In this document: positions 13,921-59,639 of the stretch, one piece after another | Position numbering within the stretch: the first letter of the stretch is position 1 | Layout: every line of letters starts with the position of its first letter | Notes under the pieces: generated by a model | What the model saw: the letters and a program-made list of their open reading frames with translations, nothing else | Database searches by the model: none | Told to the model about the DNA's origin: nothing | From: Cyathus striatus | Lineage: Eukaryota; Basidiomycota; Agaricomycetes; Agaricales; Nidulariaceae | Assembly: GCA_025738555.1 (NCBI GenBank) | Contig: JAOVFP010000001.1 | Span: forward strand, 1,116,001-1,180,000 | Direction: 5' to 3' | Length of the DNA stretch: 64,000 nucleotides | Made by a program: the position numbers and the translations under genes

Positions 13921-15583
13921 CTCTAGTCTGCTTACAGTCCGAACTACAGTCTAAGTACAAACAAGCTTACAGTTTGCCTACGTGCAAGCCTCTGGCAGTG
14001 TATTATCTAAAAGTACTCGGGGCCTGTTCGGGTGCACAGTCTATTTTTTTTTAGCTGGGGTAGGCTTACATAGGAAACAATGTCACAGTTACATAATGTG
14101 TTACATACGCATCGGTGCATCGGCGCATCATCTCTGGAAACCAATCGATGACTTAGCCGCTCAATGTATAGTGATGTGTGACGTATCTTGTTTCAGTGGG
14201 TGACAAAACAACAGTATTAGTTAGAAAGTCCCTCTAAAGTCAATATTTTTTTAAATTTTACAATACGGAGGCATTAGAATAGTTATATCACACAACAGTC
14301 AAATTTGAGTTTAACAAAATGACACCTTCGTCACCATTAGATCAATAGTGACCCCATGATGACTAAATCGCTACGTATTAGTGACTGAGCGTTTTTACTG
14401 AAGGTGACAGGGCATACATGACTCAGTTACAGATGGCTCCATAGGACCAACGACAAGGTTTCTATATTCAATTAGCAAATGGTATCGCTGTAATACGCCT
14501 AGTGTACTTCTACCTACTGTAAAAACATTATTTCTATATTCTACGCGCTACTTACAAACGGTACAATATATCTGGGTTGTAATTAGTAGCTAAGGTAGAG
14601 GTCCCGGACCGTTAGCTAGCGTGGGAACGATTCGCGCTAATAAGGGACATAACTAGCCTAAGTAGGAAAGCGTCTAAGAATAGAAACACCGAGGTCAGAG
14701 CTTATTCTCGACATCGGTGAGAAGTAATTACCAGTAAGGCCGGAGATCGAGCTAAGCGCGCGTCTATTCTAATAATAGGATATCGAAGCTATGTTATTGC
14801 GTCATAGGAAAAGGCATGAGCACTAGACCCACGGCAGTTGCCGCTATCTAACCACGCTGTACCAGCGCTGTGCATCAGCACACCATAGGCGCCTGGATAG
14901 GCCTGAGACCCGGCATTCCCGGCCGGCTTATTCAGCGTTTCCCATTTCCACGCGTCAAAGCGCGCGGCATCACGCCTTCATATGGAGCGTCTCACCTGCG
15001 GATATGGCTTATTGTACTTCGCTATCTTTCCATATGGACGCATTCTTGGCGCTAGTATGTTTGGTATATTCATGATTTACTCTGGTCCATCCCAGATGCC
15101 TGTCTCCAGTCTAAAAGTCTACTTTACAGCTTAGCTGATGTGTAATTACTGCTTTGGTATTAACTATATAGTTTCTCTTAGACGTGTTCTGTAAGATATT
15201 TAATAGGTAGATTTGTGTAGTAGAAGGGCAGTCTCCTGTGCCCCGAGAAATACCATCTAGCATCGTGCTTTAGTATTTGTGTGAGCTTTGAGATTCTAAG
15301 TGCAACGCGAAGTGTGAAGTCATAAGGCCGTGTTAAGTCCGAGATTAAGGAATGCACATCAAAACGCGCATCAAAGCGTTCGCTAAGTGTGCACTCCCTC
15401 TCGAACGTCGGTTTTCGACACCCTTTCTATTACTTTACTTCGCCCGGAAGCACCTTGCATCCGAGTCTTACCCACCGAGCACTTTCTTAGTGAGCGTACG
15501 TGGTGTGAGTTTTATTATTAATATTTACATTTACACTACGTTGCGCTAAACTAGGTACTTTAGCTGGATCAAACTAGAATTAG
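13921..15583 (+). repeat. dispersed repeat R1, copy A (interrupted)
   Basis: 13921-14490 plus 15563-15583 match 19757-20343 almost base for base, starting at CTCTAGTCTGC and ending at GATCAAACTAGAATTAG. Only a handful of substitutions are visible over ~590 bp. The copy is split by an insertion (see the next entry). It carries an open frame of about 70 residues in both copies, but I see no sign that it is selected. No TIR or LTR structure is evident at the repeat's own ends. Confidence 0.75.
14491..15562. mobile_element. 1,072-bp insertion with imperfect TIRs and 4-bp target duplication GCTG
   Basis: Repeat copy B shows the uninterrupted site ...ATCGCTGGATC... In copy A the same site has GCTG at both edges (14487-14490 and 15563-15566) with 1,072 bp between. 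The left end is TAATACGCCTAGTGTA. The reverse complement of the right end is TAAAGTACCTAGTTTA. They share TAA....CCTAGT.TA without gaps, and a weaker match continues to an ACxTAxTGTAAA motif. This fits a non-autonomous DNA transposon; no transposase is visible. Superfamily not assigned. Confidence 0.6.
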
Positions 15584-19695: not shown

Positions 19696-20343
19696 GCCAA
19701 CAGTCAAATTTGAGTTTAACAAAATGACACCTTCGTCACCATTAGATCAATAGTGACTCTAGTCTGCTTACAGTCCGAACTACAGTCTAAGTACAAACAA
19801 GCTTACAGTTTGCCTACGTGCAAGCCTCTGGCAGTGTATTATCTAAAAGTACTCGGGGCCTGTTCGGGTGCACAGTCTATTTTTTTTTAGCTGGGGTAGG
19901 CTTACATAGGAAACAATGTCACAGTTACATAATGTGTTACATATGCATCGGCACATCGGCGCATCATCTCTGGAAACCAATCGATGACTTAGCCGCTCAA
20001 TGTATAGTGATGTGTGACGTATCTTGTTTCAGTGGGTGACAAAACAACAGTATTAGTTAGAAAGTCCCTCTAAAGTCAATATTTTTTTAAATTTTACAAT
20101 ACGGAGGCATTAGAATAGTTATATCACACAACAGTCAAATTTGAGTTTAAAAAAATGACACCTTCGTCACCATTAGATCAATAGTGACCCCATGATGACT
20201 AAATCGCTATGTATTAGTGACTGAGCGTTTTTACTGAAGGTGACAGGGCATACATGACTCAGTTACAGATGGCTCCGTAGGACCAACGACAAGGTTTCTA
20301 TATTCAATTAGCAAATGGTATCGCTGGATCAAACTAGAATTAG
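19696..20343 (+). repeat. dispersed repeat R1, copy B (uninterrupted), with a partial tandem copy in front
   Basis: 19757-20343 is the intact counterpart of copy A. It is preceded at 19696-19756 by a 61-bp piece (AACAGTCAAATTTGAGTTTA ... ATCAATAGTGAC) that also occurs inside the repeat at about 20131-20192 and 14294-14352. The arrangement looks like the junction of two head-to-tail copies, the first mostly lost. Confidence 0.7.
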
Positions 20344-38372: not shown

Positions 38373-40140
38373 CTAAGTTATTCTGGTCTTGCCCGTTGTG
38401 TCTGTTCCTAAAAAGTCATCATTTGTGTTTAGTGATGTATGGTGATTATGTTGTGTACGTGATTGTTTACATTTTTGTTGAGCTTTTGCAAAATGATCAT
38501 CCCGGCTATCTTTACACTCATGTAGAACTTGCATGTTATCAATTCTATTTCTTATCTTTGAACTACATGTGGAATAAAAATTTTCATATGCAATTTTCCA
38601 AGTTTCATTTTCTCCTTTAAGATCCATAACACTTCTCCAGGGTTTTAAAAAAATCAGCATTAAACATGCATGTCGATGCATAGTTTGTTCATGATCTCTG
38701 CGAGGTATACTAGGACCAGAAGGTACAGGTATATAGATTAAATCCTGTGACTGAATTGAAATGTGATGAGTATGAGAATCTGGATGGGAAGATTGAAAAG
38801 GTAATTTTTGATTTTTTGTTGAAGAGTTATTCTCTTGTACTGTGACATTTCCACTTGAATTTGATTTTTGCTGTAACACTTTATCAGTACAAGATGTAAA
38901 ATCCCATAAATTGAGATCATTTAAATCACAACCTCTTAATTCATAATCAGTAATCAAAGATGTTTTTGCAGTCACTCCACCTTGATTATCAACATGAACT
39001 GTTATGTCTGCATTTGAATCTTCATTTAGTAAAGATAATTCATCATTAAATTGAGGTTCTACAACACTGTCTGTATTTATACTGTTTCCAAAATTGTTTT
39101 CAAGAGAGAATTCAGTATTAAGATCAGACTGATTATCTAAATTGTGATTGTAACCATTTGTATTCTGATTTGTACCAGTGTTGTTCTGTATTTGTGTATT
39201 GTTTAAGGTGTAACATTCTGGGGAAGGATACTGAGCTTCAAGAAATTTTTCAAAAGGGATCCAATACAAATTTCGATAGAGATGGCTTGTAAAGTGATCC
39301 TCAAAGTCTAACAGGTAGGATACAACTTGTTGAGCAGATAATTCTTGATGTGAAATTAAGGAGTAGGCACATTTCTGCAATAATTTTTTAGCATGGGTTT
39401 CAATATTATCTGTGTCAGAGTCCAATACATTTAATTTTTCAACAGCTGCTTGAAGTGCTGCATAAGCAACATGAGATTTCAGTTGTGATTTTGTGATATA
39501 ATCAGAAATGTAAAAAAATACTGCTTTTGCAATAAATCCTGAAAGAATAAATTTAATGTCCATGTTAGATCTTAAACATTCAATTGTCAAGTCATTAAAG
39601 TTATTTACAAAATCATTTAAACAACGAAGATCAAGTTCACCAGTTTCTTCATTGAACAAAGTGCAGGCTTTACATTACCTTTTCCAAGGCCAAACCAACA
39701 TTCTTTTGATTCACCAACTTTCCAATATTTGAAACAAGTACTACTGTGTTTATGTACTTGGCAAAAAGATACTAAATGATGAAGGTCCTTTAGTCTAGCT
39801 TTTAAATAATCATCTTTATCAAGTTGTTCTTGAAGTACTCCAAGGACAGAACAAGGATGTTTTGTTGAAGATGGAACTACAATGTTTGGATCAGGATCAG
39901 CTGGAATATCATTTGATATTGTTGCATCCAAATATGCAATAAGCTGATCATGAAAACCTACATCCTGTTTATGTAATATTTTTTATTTTATTTCCTGTGG
40001 ATTTAAAGCACCTTCCACCCAAAACACCATATGACAATGCAAAGAACCTCTTCCCTGAGCTTCAACACATCCATAATAGGCACTAATTACTCCAAATGCA
40101 CCTTGTTGTAAATTAACACCCTGTGAAGGTTTAAAATGTT
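38373..40140 (-). mobile_element. Helitron rep/helicase fragment, AT-rich
   Basis: Read from 40140 downward: GAFGVISAYYGCVEAQGRGS with LHCHMVFWVEGALNP, the Helitron-like HUH block (HCH here); VSFCQVHKHSSTCFKYWKVG; then, after a frameshift near 39660, an uninterrupted 428-codon frame with ETGELDLRCLNDFVNNFN, DYITKSQLKSHVAYAALQAA, LLQKCAYSLISHQELSAQQV, FEDHFTSHLYRNLYWIPFEK and finally VPSGPSIPRRDHEQ and DNMQVLHECKDSRDDHF at 38373. This is the linker region between the nuclease and the helicase of fungal Helitrons. The N-terminus and the whole helicase are missing, and no CTRR end was identified. Base composition is far more AT-rich than the flanks. Confidence 0.85.
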
Positions 40141-40672: not shown

Positions 40673-41405
40673 AGGGGTGTCAGCCAAATTTATCATTTAA
40701 CAGCAGTGTTATATGATATGGGATATCATATAAGGTCTGAGTTTTATGAGTGAGGCATATACTATATGTATATACAGGCTATTCATAAGTACTCATTACT
40801 TTATGCTTATTATTATTGTGATAGTATTATGAGTACTCATAAGTACTCATTACTTTATGTTTCCTATTATTATTGTAATGGTACTGTGGGTAATCATAAG
40901 TACTCATTACTTTGTATTTCCTATTGTTATTGTAATGGTATTGTGGGTACTCATAAATACTCATTACTTTATGCTTTCTATTATTATTGTAATGGTATTA
41001 TGGGTACTCATAAGTACTCATTACTTTATGCTTGCTATTATTATTGTAATGGTATTAGGAGTACTCATAAGCACTCATTACTTCATATTTCCTATTACTG
41101 TAATGGTATTAGGAGTACTTATAAGCACTCATTACTTTGTATTTCCTATTGTTATTGTGATGGTATTGTGGGTACTCATAAATACTCATTACTTTATGCT
41201 TTCTATTATTATTGTATTGGTATTATGAGTACTCATAAGTACTCATTACTTTATATTTCCTATTGTTATTGTAATAGTATTAAAAGTACTCATAAGTGCT
41301 TATTACTTTATATTTCCTATTGTTATTGTAATGGTATTATGAGTACTCATAAGCACTCATTACTTTATTATTGTAGGTACTCATAAGTACTCATTGCTAT
41401 TACAG
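40673..41405 (+). repeat. hairpin-headed minisatellite 1 (57-bp units, ~11 copies)
   Basis: Leader GTGTCAGCCAAATTTATCAT, then a palindrome with perfect 11-bp arms TTATATGATAT (40709-40719) and ATATCATATAA (40723-40733) around GGG. From ~40780 a 57-bp unit built on GGTACTCATAAGTACTCATTA plus TTATTATTGTAATGGTATT repeats to 41405. Because 57 is a multiple of three, two frames stay open for over 120 codons; I regard these as by-products. Confidence 0.8.
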
Positions 41406-45687: not shown

Positions 45688-46050
45688 GGACCCTATAACC
45701 CAACTACCTTAAAAGGTAGTGGGAATTTCCCACGCTTCGCATTTGTCACGTACTTCATGTGCATCATGTTCGTCACACATATTCCTGTGCTTCGCATTTG
45801 TCACATACTTCCCGCGTGTCACGCTTGTCACATATATTCCCGCGCTTCACATCTGTCACATTTGCTGCGCGTCACGTTCGTCACATATATTCCCGCGCAT
45901 CACATTTGTCACATTCTTCCCGCCCGTCACGTCTGTCACGCATATTCCCGCACATCAATGCATCATACATTTCCCACACATCATATTTGTGACAATTTTC
46001 GCGCGTGTCACGTCTGTCACAACTCTCCCACACTACGCATATATCGCACT
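45688..46050 (+). repeat. TGTCAC minisatellite array (27-28 bp units)
   Basis: Starts at CCTATAACCC with the palindrome ACTACCTTAAAAGGTAGT and then GTGGGAATTTCCCAC. Units follow of the form TTCCCGCGY[AG]TCAC[AG]T[TC]TGTCACA, about ten, then looser copies to ~46300. Open in several frames without a protein signature. Confidence 0.7.
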
Positions 46051-47345
46051 TGTCACGCTTTAGCGCGTTTGTCACGCTTTCATGCGCGTCACGCGTCACG
46101 TTTGTCACGTTCTTTATAAGCGTTACGCTTTTATGAATGTCACACATCTCACATCTATTTGTCATGCTTTTCATGCTCATCACAGTGCATTTGTCATGCT
46201 TTGTATGCGTGTCACGCGTCACATAAGTCACGCTCATCACATAAGTCACATCTGTTTCTTGTGATTTGCACATGCATCATAGTCATCATGTCTTTGAGGC
46301 TTTCATCATGCTTTCACACACATCATAAGTGTTACTTATGTCACATCTTTGAGATTTATAACACATTTCAAGCATATTGTGCTTGCATGTGTATCATGAT
46401 TGTGACATGCTGATGGGGTTCCAACAGGTCTATAATGAAAAATTTTCTGTACATTTCATATCCAAGGAATCAGAGCACTCAGTGATGCCACATTTAACCC
46501 ATATCTCATTACTTAGCTGGGTAATTCAGCCTCTTGCATTGACAAGTCAGTCATTGATTCAGACCCTGTATGACAATACTGCACATGACTATAGAAAAAT
46601 GATAGTAAGTTTTTCTTAGGCAAGAAAGTAATGATCACTGAGCAAGAAAGTGATGAGAAGTACAGGAGGGGGTTTCATATGTATGAATGGATACTAATAC
46701 TAAAAGAACTATATAACACAAATCAGAGATGTGAAACACATGACAGTGTAGAAGTTTCATGTAGTCATATAGAGTAAGCATACATGTGACTTAATAATGT
46801 GTGTTGAAGATATAAGAATAACCAATGGTTAATGCAAGAATCATGATCATTTAATGACTGAGACATATGAGTTTAATGTGATGTGGAATCACATATACTG
46901 ACCATTCTTTCAGATTTGTTATCCATATGTAATTCTTTCAGTATATGTCCTTTTCTGTTCAGTTGTTAAATATTTCCAAAATATTCATTTCTATCATAAT
47001 GATCTCATCATCTCTCATATTCAGACTAACCATTATAGTTTTTAATTTGTCATTTAATTACATCTCTAGTTCTGATTATTAAACATCATATCATCCCATT
47101 TCCAAATTTCTCATGCTCTGTCAGTGTGGGTAAGCCTTCAACTACATATACACTCTACATTTTTCATTCTAGTTTCTTATTACTACCACACTTCTATAAC
47201 TTTCTAATTGTTATTTTCTGTGTTACAATCTCCAATTCTACAAGTACATATCATTTCATCTGCATATATAATTCACTCTACTATTAAATACTTACTCCAC
47301 TCTCATGACAACTTGAATAGTGGTAGAGACAGAAAAATCTGATGG
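46051..47345. repeat. inverted-repeat pair spacer; no gene
   Basis: 46118-46170 (TATAAGCGTTACGCT... CACACATCTCACATCTATTTG) matches the reverse complement of 47522-47575 almost perfectly. The 1.35 kb between is AT-rich and shows no coding potential. Confidence 0.5.
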
Positions 47346-47804
47346 GATTGGAAAGCATTGTATTTGTGAAAAAGTTGCAATGCACTTGAAAAATGTGACA
47401 TGCATGAAAAACACATGATGCATTTAAAAAAAAGACATGTAACATATGTGAAAAGTGTGACATGCATGCAGATCATCACGGCATGACGCGCCTCAAAGAC
47501 GTGACACGTGTGACGAGTGTTAAATGCGTGACAAATAGATGTGAGATGTGTGACATGCATAAGAGCGTAACGCTTATAGAGATTGGAAAGCATTGTATTT
47601 GTGAAAAAGTTGCAATGCACTTGAAAAATGTGACATGCATGAAAAACACATGATGCATTTAAAAAAAAGACATGTAACATATGTGAAAAGTGTGACATGC
47701 ATGCAGATCATCATGGCGTGACGCGCCTCAAAGACGTGACACGTGTGACGAGTGTGAAATGCGTGACAAATAGATGTGAGATGTGTGACATGTATAAGAG
47801 CGTA
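47346..47804. repeat. 235-bp tandem duplication of TGTCAC-family sequence (minus orientation)
   Basis: GATTGGAAAGCATTGTATTT begins both copies at 47346 and 47581; the copies are nearly identical. The second stops at GAGCGTA (47804), where the first continues ACGCTTATA. Reverse-complemented, the unit matches 46118-46300. Confidence 0.75.
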
Positions 47805-53575: not shown

Positions 53576-53598
53576 TTTTACAAGCAACCGGGACATAA

Positions 53599-54520
53599 GT
53601 GTCAGCCAAAATTATCATAAAATGCCAGGGTTATATGATTGCCTCAATCATATAAGCCAGGCATTTTATGATTGCCTGTTATTGTATGTATTAATGAATC
53701 TTGTAGTAATGAATGTATGGGTGATCATAAGTGATCATTAGGTGTTTCAAAGGCATATACTTATTAAGAATACTAATGAATGTATGGATGATCATAAGGA
53801 ATCATTCAGCATTTCAAAGGTGTATTAGCTTATTATCAATACTAATGAATGTATGGGTGATCATAAGCAATCACTAGGTGTTCCAGCTGTGTATTAGCCT
53901 ATTATCAGTACTAATGAATCTTTAAGTGATCATAGGCAATCATTAGGTGTTTCAACTGTGTATTAGCCTATTATCAATACTAATGAATCTTTAGGTGATC
54001 ATAAGCAATCATTAGGATTTTCAGCCATGTATTAGCTCATTATCAATACTAATGAATCTTTAGGTAATCATAAGCAGTCATTAAGCTTTTCAACTGTGTA
54101 TTAGCCTATTATCAATACTAATGAATCTTTAGGTGATCATAAGCAATCATTAGGTGTTTTAATTGTGTATTAGCCTGTCATCAATACTAATGAATCTTTA
54201 GGTGATCATAAGCAATCATCAGGCTTTTCAGCTGTGTATTAGCCTGTTATCAATACTAAGGAATCTTTAGGTGATCATAAGCAATCATTAGACAATTTAA
54301 GTTTGTATTGGCCTATTATCAATACTAATGAATCTTTAGGTGATTATAAGCAATCATTAAGCAATTCAGGCTTATATTGGCCTATTATCACTGCTAATGA
54401 ATCTGTAGGTGATCATAAGTAATCATCATGTATTTGAAGTGTGTATTATTTTATTATCACAGAATATTGCCTTATTATTAGTACAATGAATCTATAGGTG
54501 ATCATAAGTGATCACTAAGA
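53599..54520 (+). repeat. hairpin-headed minisatellite 2 (69-bp units, ~12 copies)
   Basis: Leader GTGTCAGCCAAAATTATCAT. Nested perfect palindromes: outer arms ATCATAAAATGCC (53614-53626) and GGCATTTTATGAT (53660-53672); inner arms TTATATGATTG (53631-53641) and CAATCATATAA (53645-53655) around CCT. From ~53690 a 69-bp unit (core GGTGATCATAAGCAATCATTAG, then TGTATTAGCCTATTATCA) repeats to ~54510. Confidence 0.85.
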
Positions 54521-56261
54521 GTATCAAGGGTATATTTGGTTACTATAAATACTGTTTTTCATTTGAAGAACTCCAGACTGAGTGCGCCCGAGTGGGTACA
54601 TCAGAGGAGAAACCGAGGTCCCAGGTGGTCTCCTAAAAATAAACAAGGGATTAATAAAAACATACCTAAAAACACATTACTCCGCCTCAGTCTTGGATTA
54701 AAAACACCTTAACAAACACTTACTTATTTTCGTTTCTTAAAAAACCAGTACGTTACGATACACTTGCTAAAGGTGTAGAAAGTCCCTACAGAACATGATT
54801 AAACTTGGAAAAGTAAAGACACAAGAAGTGCGAGAAAGGACCGCTTACCTGAACCATAGATCCAGCCCAGACTAGTCAATGCGCACACTAAGGAAATTCT
54901 TTCTTGGTTACGATACGAGGTTGAACAGGTAGATCAGAACCTGTGCAGAAAGAGGAACAAGAACAGTGTAGCGATGGCGCGTTGACAAGGAAGCGGAGAC
55001 GCATCACGCATCACGCATCACGCATCATTACTACGGCTTCCAAATTAGGAAGGCGCTTATGAAAGCGCCCGCGTATGCGCGCACTGTCGCAATAGCGCAA
55101 TAGATAAGGAATCTGGTAGCGCCATGGGATTGGCTGCGCACGCACAGACCAGTGCTGGGCGCTGACTCACTCATCATCTAGGCCTAAGCTACCATATGGG
55201 TAGGAAATCGAAATAGATAATACCCTGTAAATAGTCGTGTCAGTAAATGTATATAGACGAGTAGGGGAGAAGGAAAACGAGAGGAACTGCACGGGCATTC
55301 TTCCCCCCCACAGACAGGGCGGTGTATCAGACAGAACAGTACAGAACTAGAATACAATTTTGACATACCGATTTGAAACTGAACTCGTTTTGAATTAAAA
55401 TCTGAACCATTCATCATTAAATTGTCGAAGTCCTGCCGTGTTTTAAAAATAGACCGATCATATTCTATATTTAGTTTGACTTTGAATAGAATTGAAATCT
55501 TGCGCCCTCGAACTTATAAAATCTTTGCGCATGGGAAACTTAGATATAAAATTGCTGGAATAAGTAAAACTATTCGAAGTATAAATAAAGTGTTCTAAGC
55601 TCGTGCACTAAGTACATCAATTACACAGTAAAGCAGGGTAGAGTGCTCGATTGAATATTGACTGGAACTTACCAATTTATCTCTCGTAATACTGTCAGTG
55701 AAAAGATAGGAACAGGCTAAGTCCCTGGGAACTAATAGGAACCACTGCGGAAACTGCCACACATGTATTTGTGATGAAGTGACACGAATAAGAAAAAAAA
55801 TGGAAACAGTAAGCAAACGATGTATTAAAATGTTAGCTGATGTAAAGGAAATGAAGGAGTGTGAGGAATAGTGAATGTGGATTATGGATGGATCGTCAGT
55901 GAAGTGAAAAGTGAATGTGTGTAAGTATATCTAAAATTGTACCATAATTAAAAATGATCGTATTGAATGTGTTGGCGTCATGGCGAAAATATTAAAAATG
56001 GAAGGGCTTGGGTTGGACAATTAAAGCGAATTAAACGTACAAAATGTGAGAGAAGTGTTATTATCAATTAGGAACAACCTCAGTGGAGTGTATCACATAC
56101 CTACAACAGTTCTCGTTATCATCAATGCATCTAGGACAAAAGGATTACGTACTGAGACAGCCGCCTTAGAACTTTGCAGACTTCATTGCGGCACATTCAT
56201 CCATCAGTATTTCTTGGCACTGTTCAGTTTATATAATATAAGGTCCATTTAGCAACAATAA
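54521..56261. other. intergenic; short GCATCAC microsatellite
   Basis: Four GCATCAC/T units at 55001-55028, next to CpG-rich GCGC words to ~55140. No gene supported between the array and the next minus-strand gene. Confidence 0.4.
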
Positions 56262-59200
56262 TTACTTATGAAATACTATTATGCACCGCTTCTTTGCTTT
56301 TGCAGGTCCTGGACCGTTCCCTACAGCTCGCTTAGCTCCTACAAGTGCTGGTAGGGTGTCGACTTGCTTGAATACCCAGGTGATATCTTCGACAGTGTTC
56401 CAAAGATTCTCCACTGAGTCGTCTGGTGCCTGCTGAATTGCAGAAATCCACCAAGATAATGATACCATAACGCAGCACATGCCCAATGGCCCCCCACGGA
56501 ACAATGAGCCCCATTCACAGCCCTCTAATGGCCTAGACTTCACAAGTGAGCTATTTTCGGAAAGACGCCATTGCGGTTGAATTGCAGCCCACCAGGACAT
56601 CCAAGCAGAGCCAAATTTCGCGGCTGTTATATCCGGTACAACTGATGGATTACGGTGACGTTGGATCCACCAGGATACTTCTGCGGGGCGGTTGGCGGTA
56701 GAAAAGGGCTGAAGTTATAGGTGAGCTTCAAATGTATCTATCGATGTGATAACTTACTAATATGTCAGGCTTCTTCAGCTCGAAATTCTTCCATTCAATA
56801 ACCAGGGCCTTCCAGCGTGGGTCCGAGGACACATTGTGTAGGTAGTCTATGTATGGCTGCACATATTGAGGAAGTATATCACCCCCAGTGTTGCCTGCGG
56901 TTACGCGTGGGCTTCCGCTATTCAATTCCCCAATAGAAACCGCAAAAGTTTGTAGACCTACCTTTCTATGTGTGGGTTATCATGAACACTACTTAAAAAT
57001 ATAAATCAAGTATACTTGGATGAATTACTACAAGACTTACATTTCAGTAATGCTATCCTGCTCTCCTGGGGTGGGGGCTCCACTAGCACCACATTCATCA
57101 TGTTCAGTGTCCAGCCTAAGACTTCATGATGAAAGGGGTTAAATGAATGAAGTGTTGAACTCACCTGGGAACGACATCTTCATTTACCACTGGATCGTTA
57201 TCCAAGTCAGAACTTCTTGATGTATCAGTGATGTCTGGTGTCGTTCTGAAGATGAAATTACGACACGAGATCAGCTGCTGACGAAAATAAAACACAAAAG
57301 TACATTACTTCTTTCCTATACGCTCAGATAGTGTTGCCGCCGCTCAGCTCCACTCAGCTACCGCTTGCTCAGGGCAGCTTTTATTACCTGTCAGCTCATG
57401 AGCTGAGCGGAGTCAATCCAAGCACGGCTCACTTTTCACAACTCAGCTCGTTGAGCCAGCTTAGCGGGCGCTCAGGCACCTCAGGTATGAATAGAAATTA
57501 TAGTAACATATTTTTGATATCATTCTAGCTTCTATAATCGGCATTACGTCAAGCTACATGACAAGAAGTGGCTTCGACCAGTCATAAATTGTAGTATCTT
57601 CCTATGAATGCCGAAGCCGCAGCTTAGCTGGCTCAGAGTTGCCGCTTACCGCTCATAATATTGAGCTGAGCAACCAAAAGCGGAGAGCTGATGCAACTGG
57701 CTCAGCTCACTGAGCTGAAGCTCCGCTTGGCAGCTTGACAGCTCGGAGCTGTGCTAGTGGCAACACTACGCTCAGACCTATGCGTCCCATTGGAGTTTTT
57801 AGACTCCCTCCGCAATTTCTTAGCCTTTTGAGTACTGTCTTGCCTATTTCTTTTGTCGATATTTGGTGGCTGGTTTGGGCCTTGATCACTGCTTAACTGT
57901 AACCCAGCAAGAAACATCTTGTTTGCCGCAATGTTAGCATCCCTCGTTGCATCGTATTTAGACTTTCGGCTGCCATCAGATGTGGTAACATAGTTGACAG
58001 GAGGAGGGTTCGGGTTTGGTCGGTTCTCAACGTGCTGTTGCCTCTCGTTTTCACTACCACGTTCTCCTTCTTCTCCCTCTTCATGCCCTGCCTCTACTTC
58101 ACTCGAGTTGCCTCCGCCTTCAGCATCTTCCTGTCCCCCAGAGCCAGATGCAGATGCAGACGATTGCCTTGAAATACCAGCTAGGCTTCGTGAATCACAG
58201 ACTTCTTTAGCTGTGGTATGTTTGTCAGTTGTGGACAATGAAGGTGTGGCTGTGTACTTACAGAAACATGTATATAAGAAATTGTCGAACTTATTCGAAA
58301 CACTGTCTGCAAACTCCTTCTTTCCCATAGACTGTTCCCAGTTATTCCCTTCTGGATCCTTGCCGAAGTGAAAGCTGCATTTAAAATGTTAGTATTTGAA
58401 CGATTAGTGCAAGCTAAGTACAATAGCTGACTTACATTATATCTTCCATATTTCCGCCGCGATGAGGACGTGGACCACCTGCAAGGACAGTGAAACTCCA
58501 CCCAGTTAATTTCACAAGTCGATCAAATGTGTTCACAAATGAGACAGGAAGTCTTTTAATTGCTCTAATGGTTGCATGTGTAAGTGCATTGACTCTTTTT
58601 AAGTATAATTACTTACTTCTCGTATGCCTTGTTACGGGACACTTCATTTTCGATCTTCGAGTTATCTTCGCAGTTGCGACTTCCGAACTCTGCGCAGTGG
58701 GCTTTGATTTCGTTCTTAATAACCTCATCTTCTATATCGTAACACCTCTGGACCACCTCATTTTCGATCTCCAACCACGTCTTCTTCGGCTTTACGCCTT
58801 GTGGAACGGAAGAACAATATTCTTGCCACTCTGCCTCAACGAAGGGCTCGAGGTAATCGTGGTACAGCTTCAGATAAACCTGCCATTCTTGAATGAGCGG
58901 CTTCGGCAGCTTGTGAGTCTTTCTGGGTTTGGCGTCCAAGGCCCCTCGAGTGGTTGCAATGGAGTCATGGGTATTATTTCGAAACCAATTGCTCAGTTGC
59001 TGCAATAGCAAGAAATAATCAGTTACCACACATATAACTAGTACTCGATGTCACTTACCTTACGCCTGTGTGCCCACTTTATGGTTTTTGCAGTGGTACC
59101 TAGCTGAATCTTCTCCTTCCTGCTAGGTTTTGGTAGTCCCCATACCTCGGCCCATTCACTGTATACACCTGCGAGCCAGGCAGTCGATTTGTTCTGCTCC

Positions 59201-59277
59201 TTTGCCTCAAGAAATGCTGGTATCCTGGTTTCGAGCCATTCACACTGTTTGGGCGTAACCCAAGAGTCCCTTGTCAT
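56262..59277 (-). CDS. uncharacterised multi-exon agaricomycete protein (carries a MITE)
   Basis: ATG at 59277 (MTRDSWVTPKQCEWLETRIP), although an exon further upstream is possible. In order: WLAGVYSEWAEVWGLPKPSR; NWFRNNTHDSIATTRGALDA with PKPLIQEWQVYLKLYHDYLE; IKRLPVSFVNTFDRLVKLTG with GWSFTVLAGGPRP; FHFGKDPEGNNWEQSMGKKE; an acidic low-complexity part; DITDTSRSSDLDNDPVVNED; GGDILPQYVQPYIDYLHNVS with PRWKALVIEWKNFELKKPDI; and RPAEVSWWIQRHRNPSVV, SAWMSWWAAIQPQWRLSENS, GSLFRGGPLGMCCVMVSLSW, SVENLWNTVEDITWVFKQV, to a stop at 56262. Introns are about 50-60 bp. Trp-rich N- and C-terminal blocks are those of a large mushroom family of unknown function; its frequent neighbours in genomes are not known to me. 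Apart from the 440-bp insertion the frame appears open throughout. Confidence 0.65.
57329..57768. mobile_element. 440-bp hAT-type MITE with 8-bp target duplication
   Basis: TIRs TAGTGTTGCC (57329-57338) and GGCAACACTA (57759-57768), flanked by the perfect 8-bp duplication CGCTCAGA (57321-57328 and 57769-57776). The body is crowded with GAGCTGAGC/GCTCAGCTC words in both orientations, typical of subterminal transposase-binding repeats. TAGTG ends with 8-bp duplications point to hAT. No transposase. Confidence 0.85.
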
Positions 59278-59639
59278 AGCGTATGTCTGAGTCGGTAAGC
59301 TGATGTAAGGGTAAGGATAACCTTTAGTTCTAAACAAAGAAAATATTAGTAACAATGTAAGGTCGACGGGAATGTAACAAGAGAGAAAACCTTTGAAACA
59401 AAGTTTAGACACGAAGATTTGAAGGATTTTCAAAAAAAAAGAACGGTGAAACGGAATGTGAGACCGCTGACAACAACCTGAAGACAGAAACGGAGACTCA
59501 GAGCTCGACGGCGAGAGGGGAAAATTCACTCAGTTTGGGAGGAGTAAATATGTGGATTATATAGAAATTAGAATAAAGACTTTACCTAATGAGGAATGGT
59601 TGGTAAAATGGAGATTATGTGTCTTGAGATCGACGATTT

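What the first reader, a model, noticed from the sequence alone, without database searches (positions are those of the whole stretch)
53599..54520. Hairpin-headed minisatellite, copy 2, with nested cruciform
Outer 13-bp and inner 11-bp perfect stems are nested. Compared with copy 1, the inner stem changed from GATAT/ATATC to GATTG/CAATC, so both arms changed together. That implies selection or a templating mechanism acting on the fold, not on the sequence. The array units of the two copies differ in length (57 and 69 bp) but share a core around TCATAAG...TCATTA.
Basis: partly seen in the sequence, partly recalled or inferred. Interest (0 to 1): 0.75.

Follow-up and report, generated by a model that had tools for sequence, protein, structure and literature searches.

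The report
Hairpin-tipped end of fungal DNA transposon
The hairpin followed by a repeat array is one end of a large cut-and-paste "jumping gene" of the KDZ class in a mushroom genome, an end type found hundreds of times there, whose small hairpin keeps its shape between subfamilies and in one subfamily has flipped over several times.

Summary
The hairpin and array are real: one 28-bp stem with two mismatches (DNA fold z = -7.1), then about eleven 69-bp units. They are the end of a DNA transposon, not a free-standing minisatellite. The end motif has 388 hits genome-wide (reversed-pattern control 1) and two outer hexamers, CATAAG and GAGGGG. Of 38 pairs with one of each, 23 are flanked by an exact 7-bp target duplication; of 14 same-hexamer pairs, 0. 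Two such elements (16.6 and 17.3 kb) hold a KDZ transposase. Copy 2 is the CATAAG end of such an element: 12 kb on, outside the window, lie a KDZ gene and an inverted, truncated array up to 89% identical.

In one subfamily the loop inverted at least three times by the tree, so the palindrome probably extrudes. All ten array stretches examined repeat two TCAT half-sites 10 bp apart, plausibly transposase sites as in Galileo; binding is inferred. KDZ elements with 7-bp duplications (Kyakuja) are known; this end architecture and the flips look new.

The parts
53587..53593 (+). Outer flank ACCGGGA, the expected 7-bp target-site copy (no partner found; the other end is truncated)
   Evidence: Sequence; neither ACCGGGA nor its reverse complement occurs in the stretch C1:1180001-1196740
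53594..53599 (+). Terminal hexamer CATAAG of the transposon end (C-type end)
   Evidence: 329 exact CATAAGTGTCAGCCAA in the genome, reversed-pattern control 0; the 7-bp duplications abut this hexamer in other copies
53600..53609 (+). TGTCAGCCAA, the motif common to both end types
   Evidence: 388 hits to GTGTCAGCCAAANTTATCAT at up to 2 mismatches, control 1
53614..53672 (+). Subterminal palindrome: arms 53614-53641 and 53645-53672, loop CCT; two mismatches in 28 pairs
53703..54553 (+). Subterminal 69-bp array; 9 pairs of TCAT half-sites spaced exactly 10 bp were counted in 53703-54520
   Evidence: related arrays elsewhere and, inverted, at C1:1184975-1185388
57900..59279 (+). Interior segment of the same element: 9 of the 10 other places with at least 380 bp of it have a KDZ transposase hit 7-15 kb downstream on the same strand
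   Evidence: read by eye; only the 40 best candidates were scored
40672..41400 (+). Copy 1: a G-type end (GAGGGG) of a related element, with 57-bp array; hairpin at 40709-40733, loop GGG
   Evidence: 94.5-98.6% identical over 764-770 bp to four loci with GAGGGG ends, less to others

Best explanation
The feature is the left (CATAAG) end of a roughly 16-kb DNA transposon of the KDZ (Kyakuja-Dileera-Zisupton) class, most likely of the Kyakuja type, in an agaricomycete genome; its right end is truncated 5.4 kb beyond the window. Shown: the terminal motif, two unlike outer hexamers, 7-bp target duplications found only around pairs with one of each, KDZ transposase inside complete elements, the paired inverted array. 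Inferred: the transposase, through its zinc-cluster domain, gathers on the tandem sites (two TCAT half-sites one helical turn apart in the array units) and on the palindrome, bringing the two ends together for cut-and-paste excision and re-insertion; the unlike hexamers tell left end from right end. The palindrome extrudes as a cruciform at times, which explains its loop inversions, and it is kept palindromic in lineages that still jump while dead copies decay by uncompensated mutation.
For: 388 hits of the terminal motif against 1 in the control; CATAAG 329 and GAGGGG 119 exact 16-mers, controls 0. Exact 7-bp duplications: 6 of 14 mixed-end pairs in a first panel; 12 of 14 in a second, chosen before its flanks were seen; in a systematic recount over all 165 ends in hand 23 of 38 mixed pairs (3 more match 6 of 7) and 0 of 14 same-end pairs. 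KDZ hits lie inside two elements bounded by exact 7-bp duplications: C3:1980708-1998016 (TCTACAC) and C6:5927308-5943886 (GAGGGAG; its first hexamer is CATGAG). Of 81 KDZ loci on C1-C14, 6 have an inward-facing GAGGGG end within 8 kb downstream, 0 any GAGGGG end in the three other positions; 0.46 expected, maximum 4 in 5000 draws. Of 27 KDZ loci on C1-C3, 14 have an inward-facing end within 25 kb (3.4 expected, maximum 10 in 2000) and 4 one on both sides (0.55 expected, maximum 4) (which replaces the hand-picked lists). Copy 2 itself: CxC2 127 bits (E 4.6e-37) and KDZ 71 bits (E 1.4e-19) in L078, then an inverted array, best stretch 89% identical, at C1:1185097-1185388. The array core recurs in all ten stretches examined, with 57-, 65- and 69-bp units where measured. 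Palindrome better than shuffles in 17 of 26 head clusters.
Against: The right end of copy 2's element is missing, so its own target duplication cannot be shown. 15 of 38 mixed pairs lack an exact duplication, among them the KDZ-bearing C3:2024640-2041956. 9 of 26 head clusters, one with 18 members, have no significant palindrome by the simple score, so the hairpin is not indispensable or has decayed there. 75 of 81 KDZ loci have no exact GAGGGG end in the tested position, so other KDZ families or diverged ends exist. Published Kyakuja of Laccaria have 5'-CA..TG-3' termini and no TIRs (PMC12730594), unlike this family. No binding data.
Confidence: 0.87

Rival explanations
1. A non-autonomous (MITE-like) family mobilised by a transposase of another superfamily with 7-bp duplications (hAT7, or the P-class element Galileo); the KDZ genes merely sit inside some copies.
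For: 7-bp duplications also occur in hAT7 (PMC12730594) and Galileo (PMC3573991); 30 of the 38 mixed pairs are under 10 kb, too short for the 16-17-kb element; Galileo also has long repetitive TIRs.
Against: Two KDZ-bearing elements carry these ends and the exact duplication; where an exact GAGGGG end lies within 8 kb of a KDZ locus it is downstream and inward-facing, 6 of 6; 9 of 10 places with the interior segment of copy 2's element have KDZ downstream on the same strand. hAT and P transposases were not searched for.
Confidence: 0.07
2. The palindrome matters as a sequence-symmetric duplex binding site for a transposase dimer, not as a hairpin or cruciform; arms covary because both half-sites must match the protein of that subfamily.
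For: TGAT/ATCA is invariant in all 14 representatives and resembles the TGATCAT of many array units; 9 of 26 head clusters manage without a significant stem.
Against: Stems of 27-32 pairs with up to 27 in a row perfect in some subfamilies exceed a usual dimer site; in one subfamily the loop flips as in extruded palindromes.
Confidence: 0.4
3. No selection on the fold: arms are matched by templated repair or conversion between arms (quasi-palindrome correction) and inversion, a mutational bias only.
For: Loop inversion of GGG to CCC, 6 CCC among the 24 GGG or CCC hits with exact arms, at least 3 changes on the tree; a title in the reference list of PMC2903610 (Kelchner and Wendel 1996; paper not seen) says that hairpins create minute inversions in chloroplast DNA.
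Against: No flip among 63 exact-arm hits of another subfamily, and 11 single changes there have not been corrected, so correction is not efficient.
Confidence: 0.25
4. A free-standing minisatellite or hairpin RNA locus unrelated to transposition, or a Helitron end.
For: Helitron remains do occur in the window (ORF 38373-39659); arrays of this size look like satellites.
Against: Exact 7-bp duplications and inverted ends are not Helitron or satellite features.
Confidence: 0.02

Closest known systems
Kyakuja DNA transposons (KDZ class) of Agaricomycetes, e.g. Kyakuja-1_LB and -2_LB of Laccaria bicolor (Kojima 2025, PMC12730594; abstract, outline, found passages and section 3.2 read)
   Same: KDZ transposase, 7-bp target duplications, one end begins with CA, agaricomycete host.
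   Different: There: 5'-CA..TG-3' termini and no TIRs, with a TET/JBP gene. Here: CATAAG..CCCCTC termini, inverted ends from base 7 on, a palindrome and arrays; no Tet_JBP hit in this genome (whose control genomes did not ring either, so absence is not shown).
Galileo (P class) of Drosophila (PMC3573991, PMC3688188; found passages read)
   Different: P-type transposase with THAP domain, not KDZ; the passages read mention no subterminal palindrome with loop flips.
Zisupton and Dileera (KDZ class)
   Same: Same Pfam transposase domain PF18758 (by its name).
   Different: 8-bp duplications according to PMC12730594; 7 bp here.
Hairpin-associated inversions of chloroplast spacers (PMC2903610, found passages read)
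   Same: Repeated inversion of the stretch between palindromic arms.
   Different: There 25-27-bp inversions in a plastid spacer; here a 3-nt loop in a nuclear transposon end.

Membership tests
KDZ DNA transposon | Transposase with KDZ domain inside the element | tested here: met
   PF18758 between inverted ends with exact duplications on C3 and C6; CxC2 and KDZ above cut-off beside copy 2's second array
KDZ DNA transposon | Complete element: two ends and target duplication, for copy 2 itself | tested here: inconclusive
   Left end intact; right array truncated at C1:1185388; neither a matching terminal motif nor an ACCGGGA copy found to C1:1196740
Kyakuja lineage of KDZ | 7-bp target duplication (8 bp in Zisupton and Dileera) | tested here: met
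   23 of 38 mixed-end pairs exact at 7 bp; source of the feature PMC12730594
Kyakuja lineage of KDZ | 5'-CA..TG-3' termini without TIRs, as in the Laccaria families | tested here: not met
   Termini CATAAG..CCCCTC; ends inverted from base 7. Reported for the Laccaria families, may not define the lineage
Kyakuja lineage of KDZ | Transposase falls in the Kyakuja clade | not tested
   No named reference transposases were compared; so filed as KDZ, Kyakuja only as likely
Galileo / P class | P-type transposase with THAP domain | not tested
   No search for THAP or P transposase was made; KDZ found instead in two complete elements
Helitron | No target duplication, no inverted ends (recalled) | tested here: not met
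   Target duplications and inverted ends present

The most novel reading that the evidence does not exclude
KDZ ends of this type are recognised through DNA structure: a cruciform that really extrudes in vivo (seen as recurrent loop flips) next to the cleavage site, with unlike outer hexamers that forbid left-left and right-right pairing. The hairpin would then be a conserved, sequence-plastic recognition part of a eukaryotic transposon end, comparable in principle to flip-flop terminal palindromes of parvoviruses (comparison from memory).
Probability: 0.2. Interest if true: 0.7.

Novelty: new variant of a known kind. Interest (0 to 1): 0.45.

Why it matters
According to the introduction of Kojima 2025 (PMC12730594, passage), of the KDZ groups only Zisupton was well characterised as a transposon before that paper. 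Here is a family in one genome with dozens of paired ends, a clear left/right asymmetry, candidate transposase sites and 7-bp duplications: enough to design a test of how a KDZ transposase recognises its ends. The hairpin is a natural case of covariation in DNA, with a built-in sign (loop flips) that the structure forms in cells.

Tried and rejected
Free-standing minisatellite or hairpin RNA: dropped once 7-bp duplications appeared. Helitron end: dropped for the same reason. Copy 1 and copy 2 as the two ends of one element: rejected, both point the same way and their families differ. The GAGGGG end at C1:1191758 as mate of copy 2: rejected, its head is of the same subfamily as the CATAAG end at C1:1187471, although that pair lacks a duplication. 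TET/JBP gene in the genome: none found, control genomes silent too. Loop flips as a general rule: rejected for the subfamily with TGG loop, 0 flips in 63 exact-arm hits. The tree of flips rests on an alignment of tandem arrays, so conversion between copies could mimic repeated flips; one row (L125) is long and of odd make-up, and label shuffles show CCC no more clustered than chance. Left out of that tree: copies equal to another over the first 400 bases went in once (L122 equals L121; L130, L035 and the GAGGGG end of L061 equal L032), L132 did not match the script's pattern, and CATAAG ends and GAG or GAA loops were not used. My first tallies of target duplications missed two mixed pairs and one same-end pair, all without an exact match; one search puts this right. 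My first KDZ lists left out weak and fragmentary hits; one search uses all listed hits on C1-C14 (133 hits, 81 loci); the listing is itself cut. Paper searches listed no description of this end architecture, but of the 68 papers with a KDZ name I opened two (PMC12730594, PMC9297572), the other listings are also partial, and most subscription journals are not in that library. Structure prediction, the Rfam search and the third protein search were not used.

Full report
What was reported and what is there. The window is C1:1116001-1180000 of an unnamed 107-Mb genome in 24 contigs. It is an agaricomycete by inference: named hits of a window ORF are Piloderma, Mycena, Suillus and similar, and the best named hits of the transposase tail are Cyathus striatus. 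The 69-bp and 57-bp arrays and their common core are also real.

It is the end of a transposon. A search with the head of copy 2 gave 44 matches, 40 of 306 candidates being scored, and the motif GTGTCAGCCAAANTTATCAT has 388 hits (195 forward, 193 reverse) at up to two mismatches against 1 for the reversed pattern. In front of TGTCAGCC stand one of two hexamers, CATAAG (329 exact 16-mers) or GAGGGG (119), or near variants; reversed controls 0 (each listing shows only the first 100 places). I compared the bases just outside the hexamers in convergent pairs of ends. Of 14 pairs with one hexamer of each kind in a first panel, 6 have an identical 7-bp flank and one more matches 6 of 7; of 6 same-hexamer pairs none. 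A second panel, 18 pairs taken from the listing before their flanks were seen, gave 12 of 14 mixed pairs with an exact 7-bp duplication, one more with 6 of 7, and 0 of 4 same-hexamer pairs. A systematic recount over all 165 ends in hand, pairing neighbours within 25 kb, gives 23 of 38 mixed pairs exact, 3 more at 6 of 7, 12 at 0-5 of 7, and 0 of 14 same-hexamer pairs. These pairs lie 1-22 kb apart.

Which transposon. PF18758 (KDZ) has 159 matches in the genome. The element C3:1980708-1998016 with flanks TCTACAC has KDZ at 1993898-1994623, and the element C6:5927308-5943886 with flanks GAGGGAG has KDZ at 5940473-5941051. A third KDZ-bearing pair, C3:2024640-2041956, has no matching flanks. Of 81 KDZ loci on C1-C14, 6 have an inward-facing GAGGGG end within 8 kb downstream and none has a GAGGGG end upstream or facing outward in that range; 0.46 expected, maximum 4 in 5000 draws. 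Of 27 KDZ loci on C1-C3, 14 have an inward-facing end within 25 kb (3.4 expected), and 4 have one on both sides (0.55 expected, maximum 4). For copy 2: KDZ at C1:1182033-1182605, with CxC2 and KDZ domains confirmed on L078, then an inverted array at C1:1184975-1185388, best stretch 89% identical to copy 2's array, cut off at 1185388. The window segment 57900-59279 recurs at ten other listed places with at least 380 bp, and at nine of them a KDZ hit lies 7-15 kb downstream on the same strand; in copy 2's element the distance is 7 kb (my reading). The neighbouring segment 59345-60039 is more widely dispersed and shows no such rule, though it too lies inside both C3 elements. So copy 2 is the left end of a KDZ element of about 16 kb whose right end is lost.

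The hairpin across the family. 105 different heads (64 C-type, 41 G-type by a simple rule; at least one, a second match in L070, is a chance match) were collected, and 26 clusters formed at 85% similarity. In 17 of 26 the best hairpin beats 150 shuffles at p < 0.02; 9 of 26 do not, among them a cluster of 18. Of the 105 heads, 83 have a comparable inner stem with 3-nt loop (36 distinct 27-mers) and 22 do not. On 14 representatives, chosen by hand from the 36, 93.5% of cells pair; 24 cells are changed on both sides against 8.6 in shuffles and the covariation score is 0.380 against 0.093, 0 of 500 as high for each; slid partners fall to 28-48% paired. The number of pairs with a change on both sides (5 of 11) and of further pair types (8) is reached by 107 and 218 of 500 shuffles, so those two measures say nothing. 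The pairs next to the loop take GC, TA or AT, and AT, TA or CG; five pairs, TGAT/ATCA among them, never vary. The rows were selected for having a stem, so the percentage paired is inflated. The heads of that subfamily printed show single changes too and no compensated pair. The loop is TGG in 73 of the 74 and TAG in one.

Loop flips. Hits to the arms of copy 1's subfamily without mismatch: 43, with loops GGG 18, GAG 17, CCC 6, GTG 1, GGA 1 (counted by eye). Among these 43 no mixture of G and C such as GCC occurs. The heads of four CCC copies (L120, L121, L123, L124) are identical to most GGG heads over the first 125 bases except for the loop; a fifth (L036) also has a 5-base deletion, and the sixth (L122) equals L121 over 400 bases. 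On a tree of 16 GAGGGG ends with the loop masked, CCC needs 4 changes, at least 3 forced by supported branches, and one clade is rejected (p-AU 4e-9). Arrays align imperfectly and copies may exchange sequence, so the number of events is approximate. In one element with an exact duplication the GAGGGG end has CCC and the CATAAG end GGG (L084, L085).

The arrays. In ten array stretches (two in the window, eight from seven loci), TCAT pairs at exactly 10 bp were the commonest spacing up to 20 bp, in one stretch equal with 8 and 18. The unit core is TGATCATAAG-TGATCATTAG or a relative, and CATAAGTG is also the outer tip of the C-type end. In Galileo, tandem repeats inside the TIR hold secondary transposase sites (PMC3688188, passages read). 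By analogy I take these arrays as transposase sites. That is inference, not shown here.

Comparison. Kojima 2025 reports that Kyakuja families of Laccaria make 7-bp duplications and have CA..TG termini without TIRs, while Zisupton and Dileera make 8-bp duplications (PMC12730594, section 3.2 and passages). The KDZ gene and the 7-bp duplication agree with Kyakuja; the termini and inverted ends do not. I therefore file it as a KDZ transposon, probably Kyakuja-like, with an end architecture that I did not find described in the searches made (partial listings, two KDZ papers opened).

Noticed in passing
window 45727-47804: Interior of an element of copy 1's family: 87-98% identical over 45727-47585 to the inside of a TSD-bounded element (L061), with a GC-rich 28/55-bp array and a 235-bp tandem duplication; 4.3 kb of other sequence lies between it and the copy 1 end.
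   Followed up: partly
window 13921-14490 and 19757-20326: 570-bp direct repeats 99% identical, 5.8 kb apart, possibly the LTRs of a young retrotransposon.
   Followed up: no
window 38373-39659 (-): 428-aa ORF whose homologs include Helitron helicase-like proteins; no Pfam hit of its own at E 0.001.
   Followed up: partly
G000:C3:1980708-1998016 and C3:2024640-2041956: Two mirrored 17.3-kb KDZ elements that share the flank of the CATAAG end but not of the GAGGGG end, suggesting a large inverted duplication with a rearranged middle.
   Followed up: no
G000:C1:1187471-1191773: A second element of this family just beyond copy 2's truncated right array; no target duplication.
   Followed up: partly
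listing: Of the 11 single changes in the TGG-loop subfamily 9 are C to T or G to A, as expected from methylcytosine decay or RIP-like mutation.
   Followed up: no
heads such as L037 and L094: Some subfamilies can form an alternative hairpin (ATCATTTAACA GCAG TGTTAAATGAT or ATCATATAACA GCAG TGTTATATGAT), again with matched arm changes, overlapping the first.
   Followed up: partly
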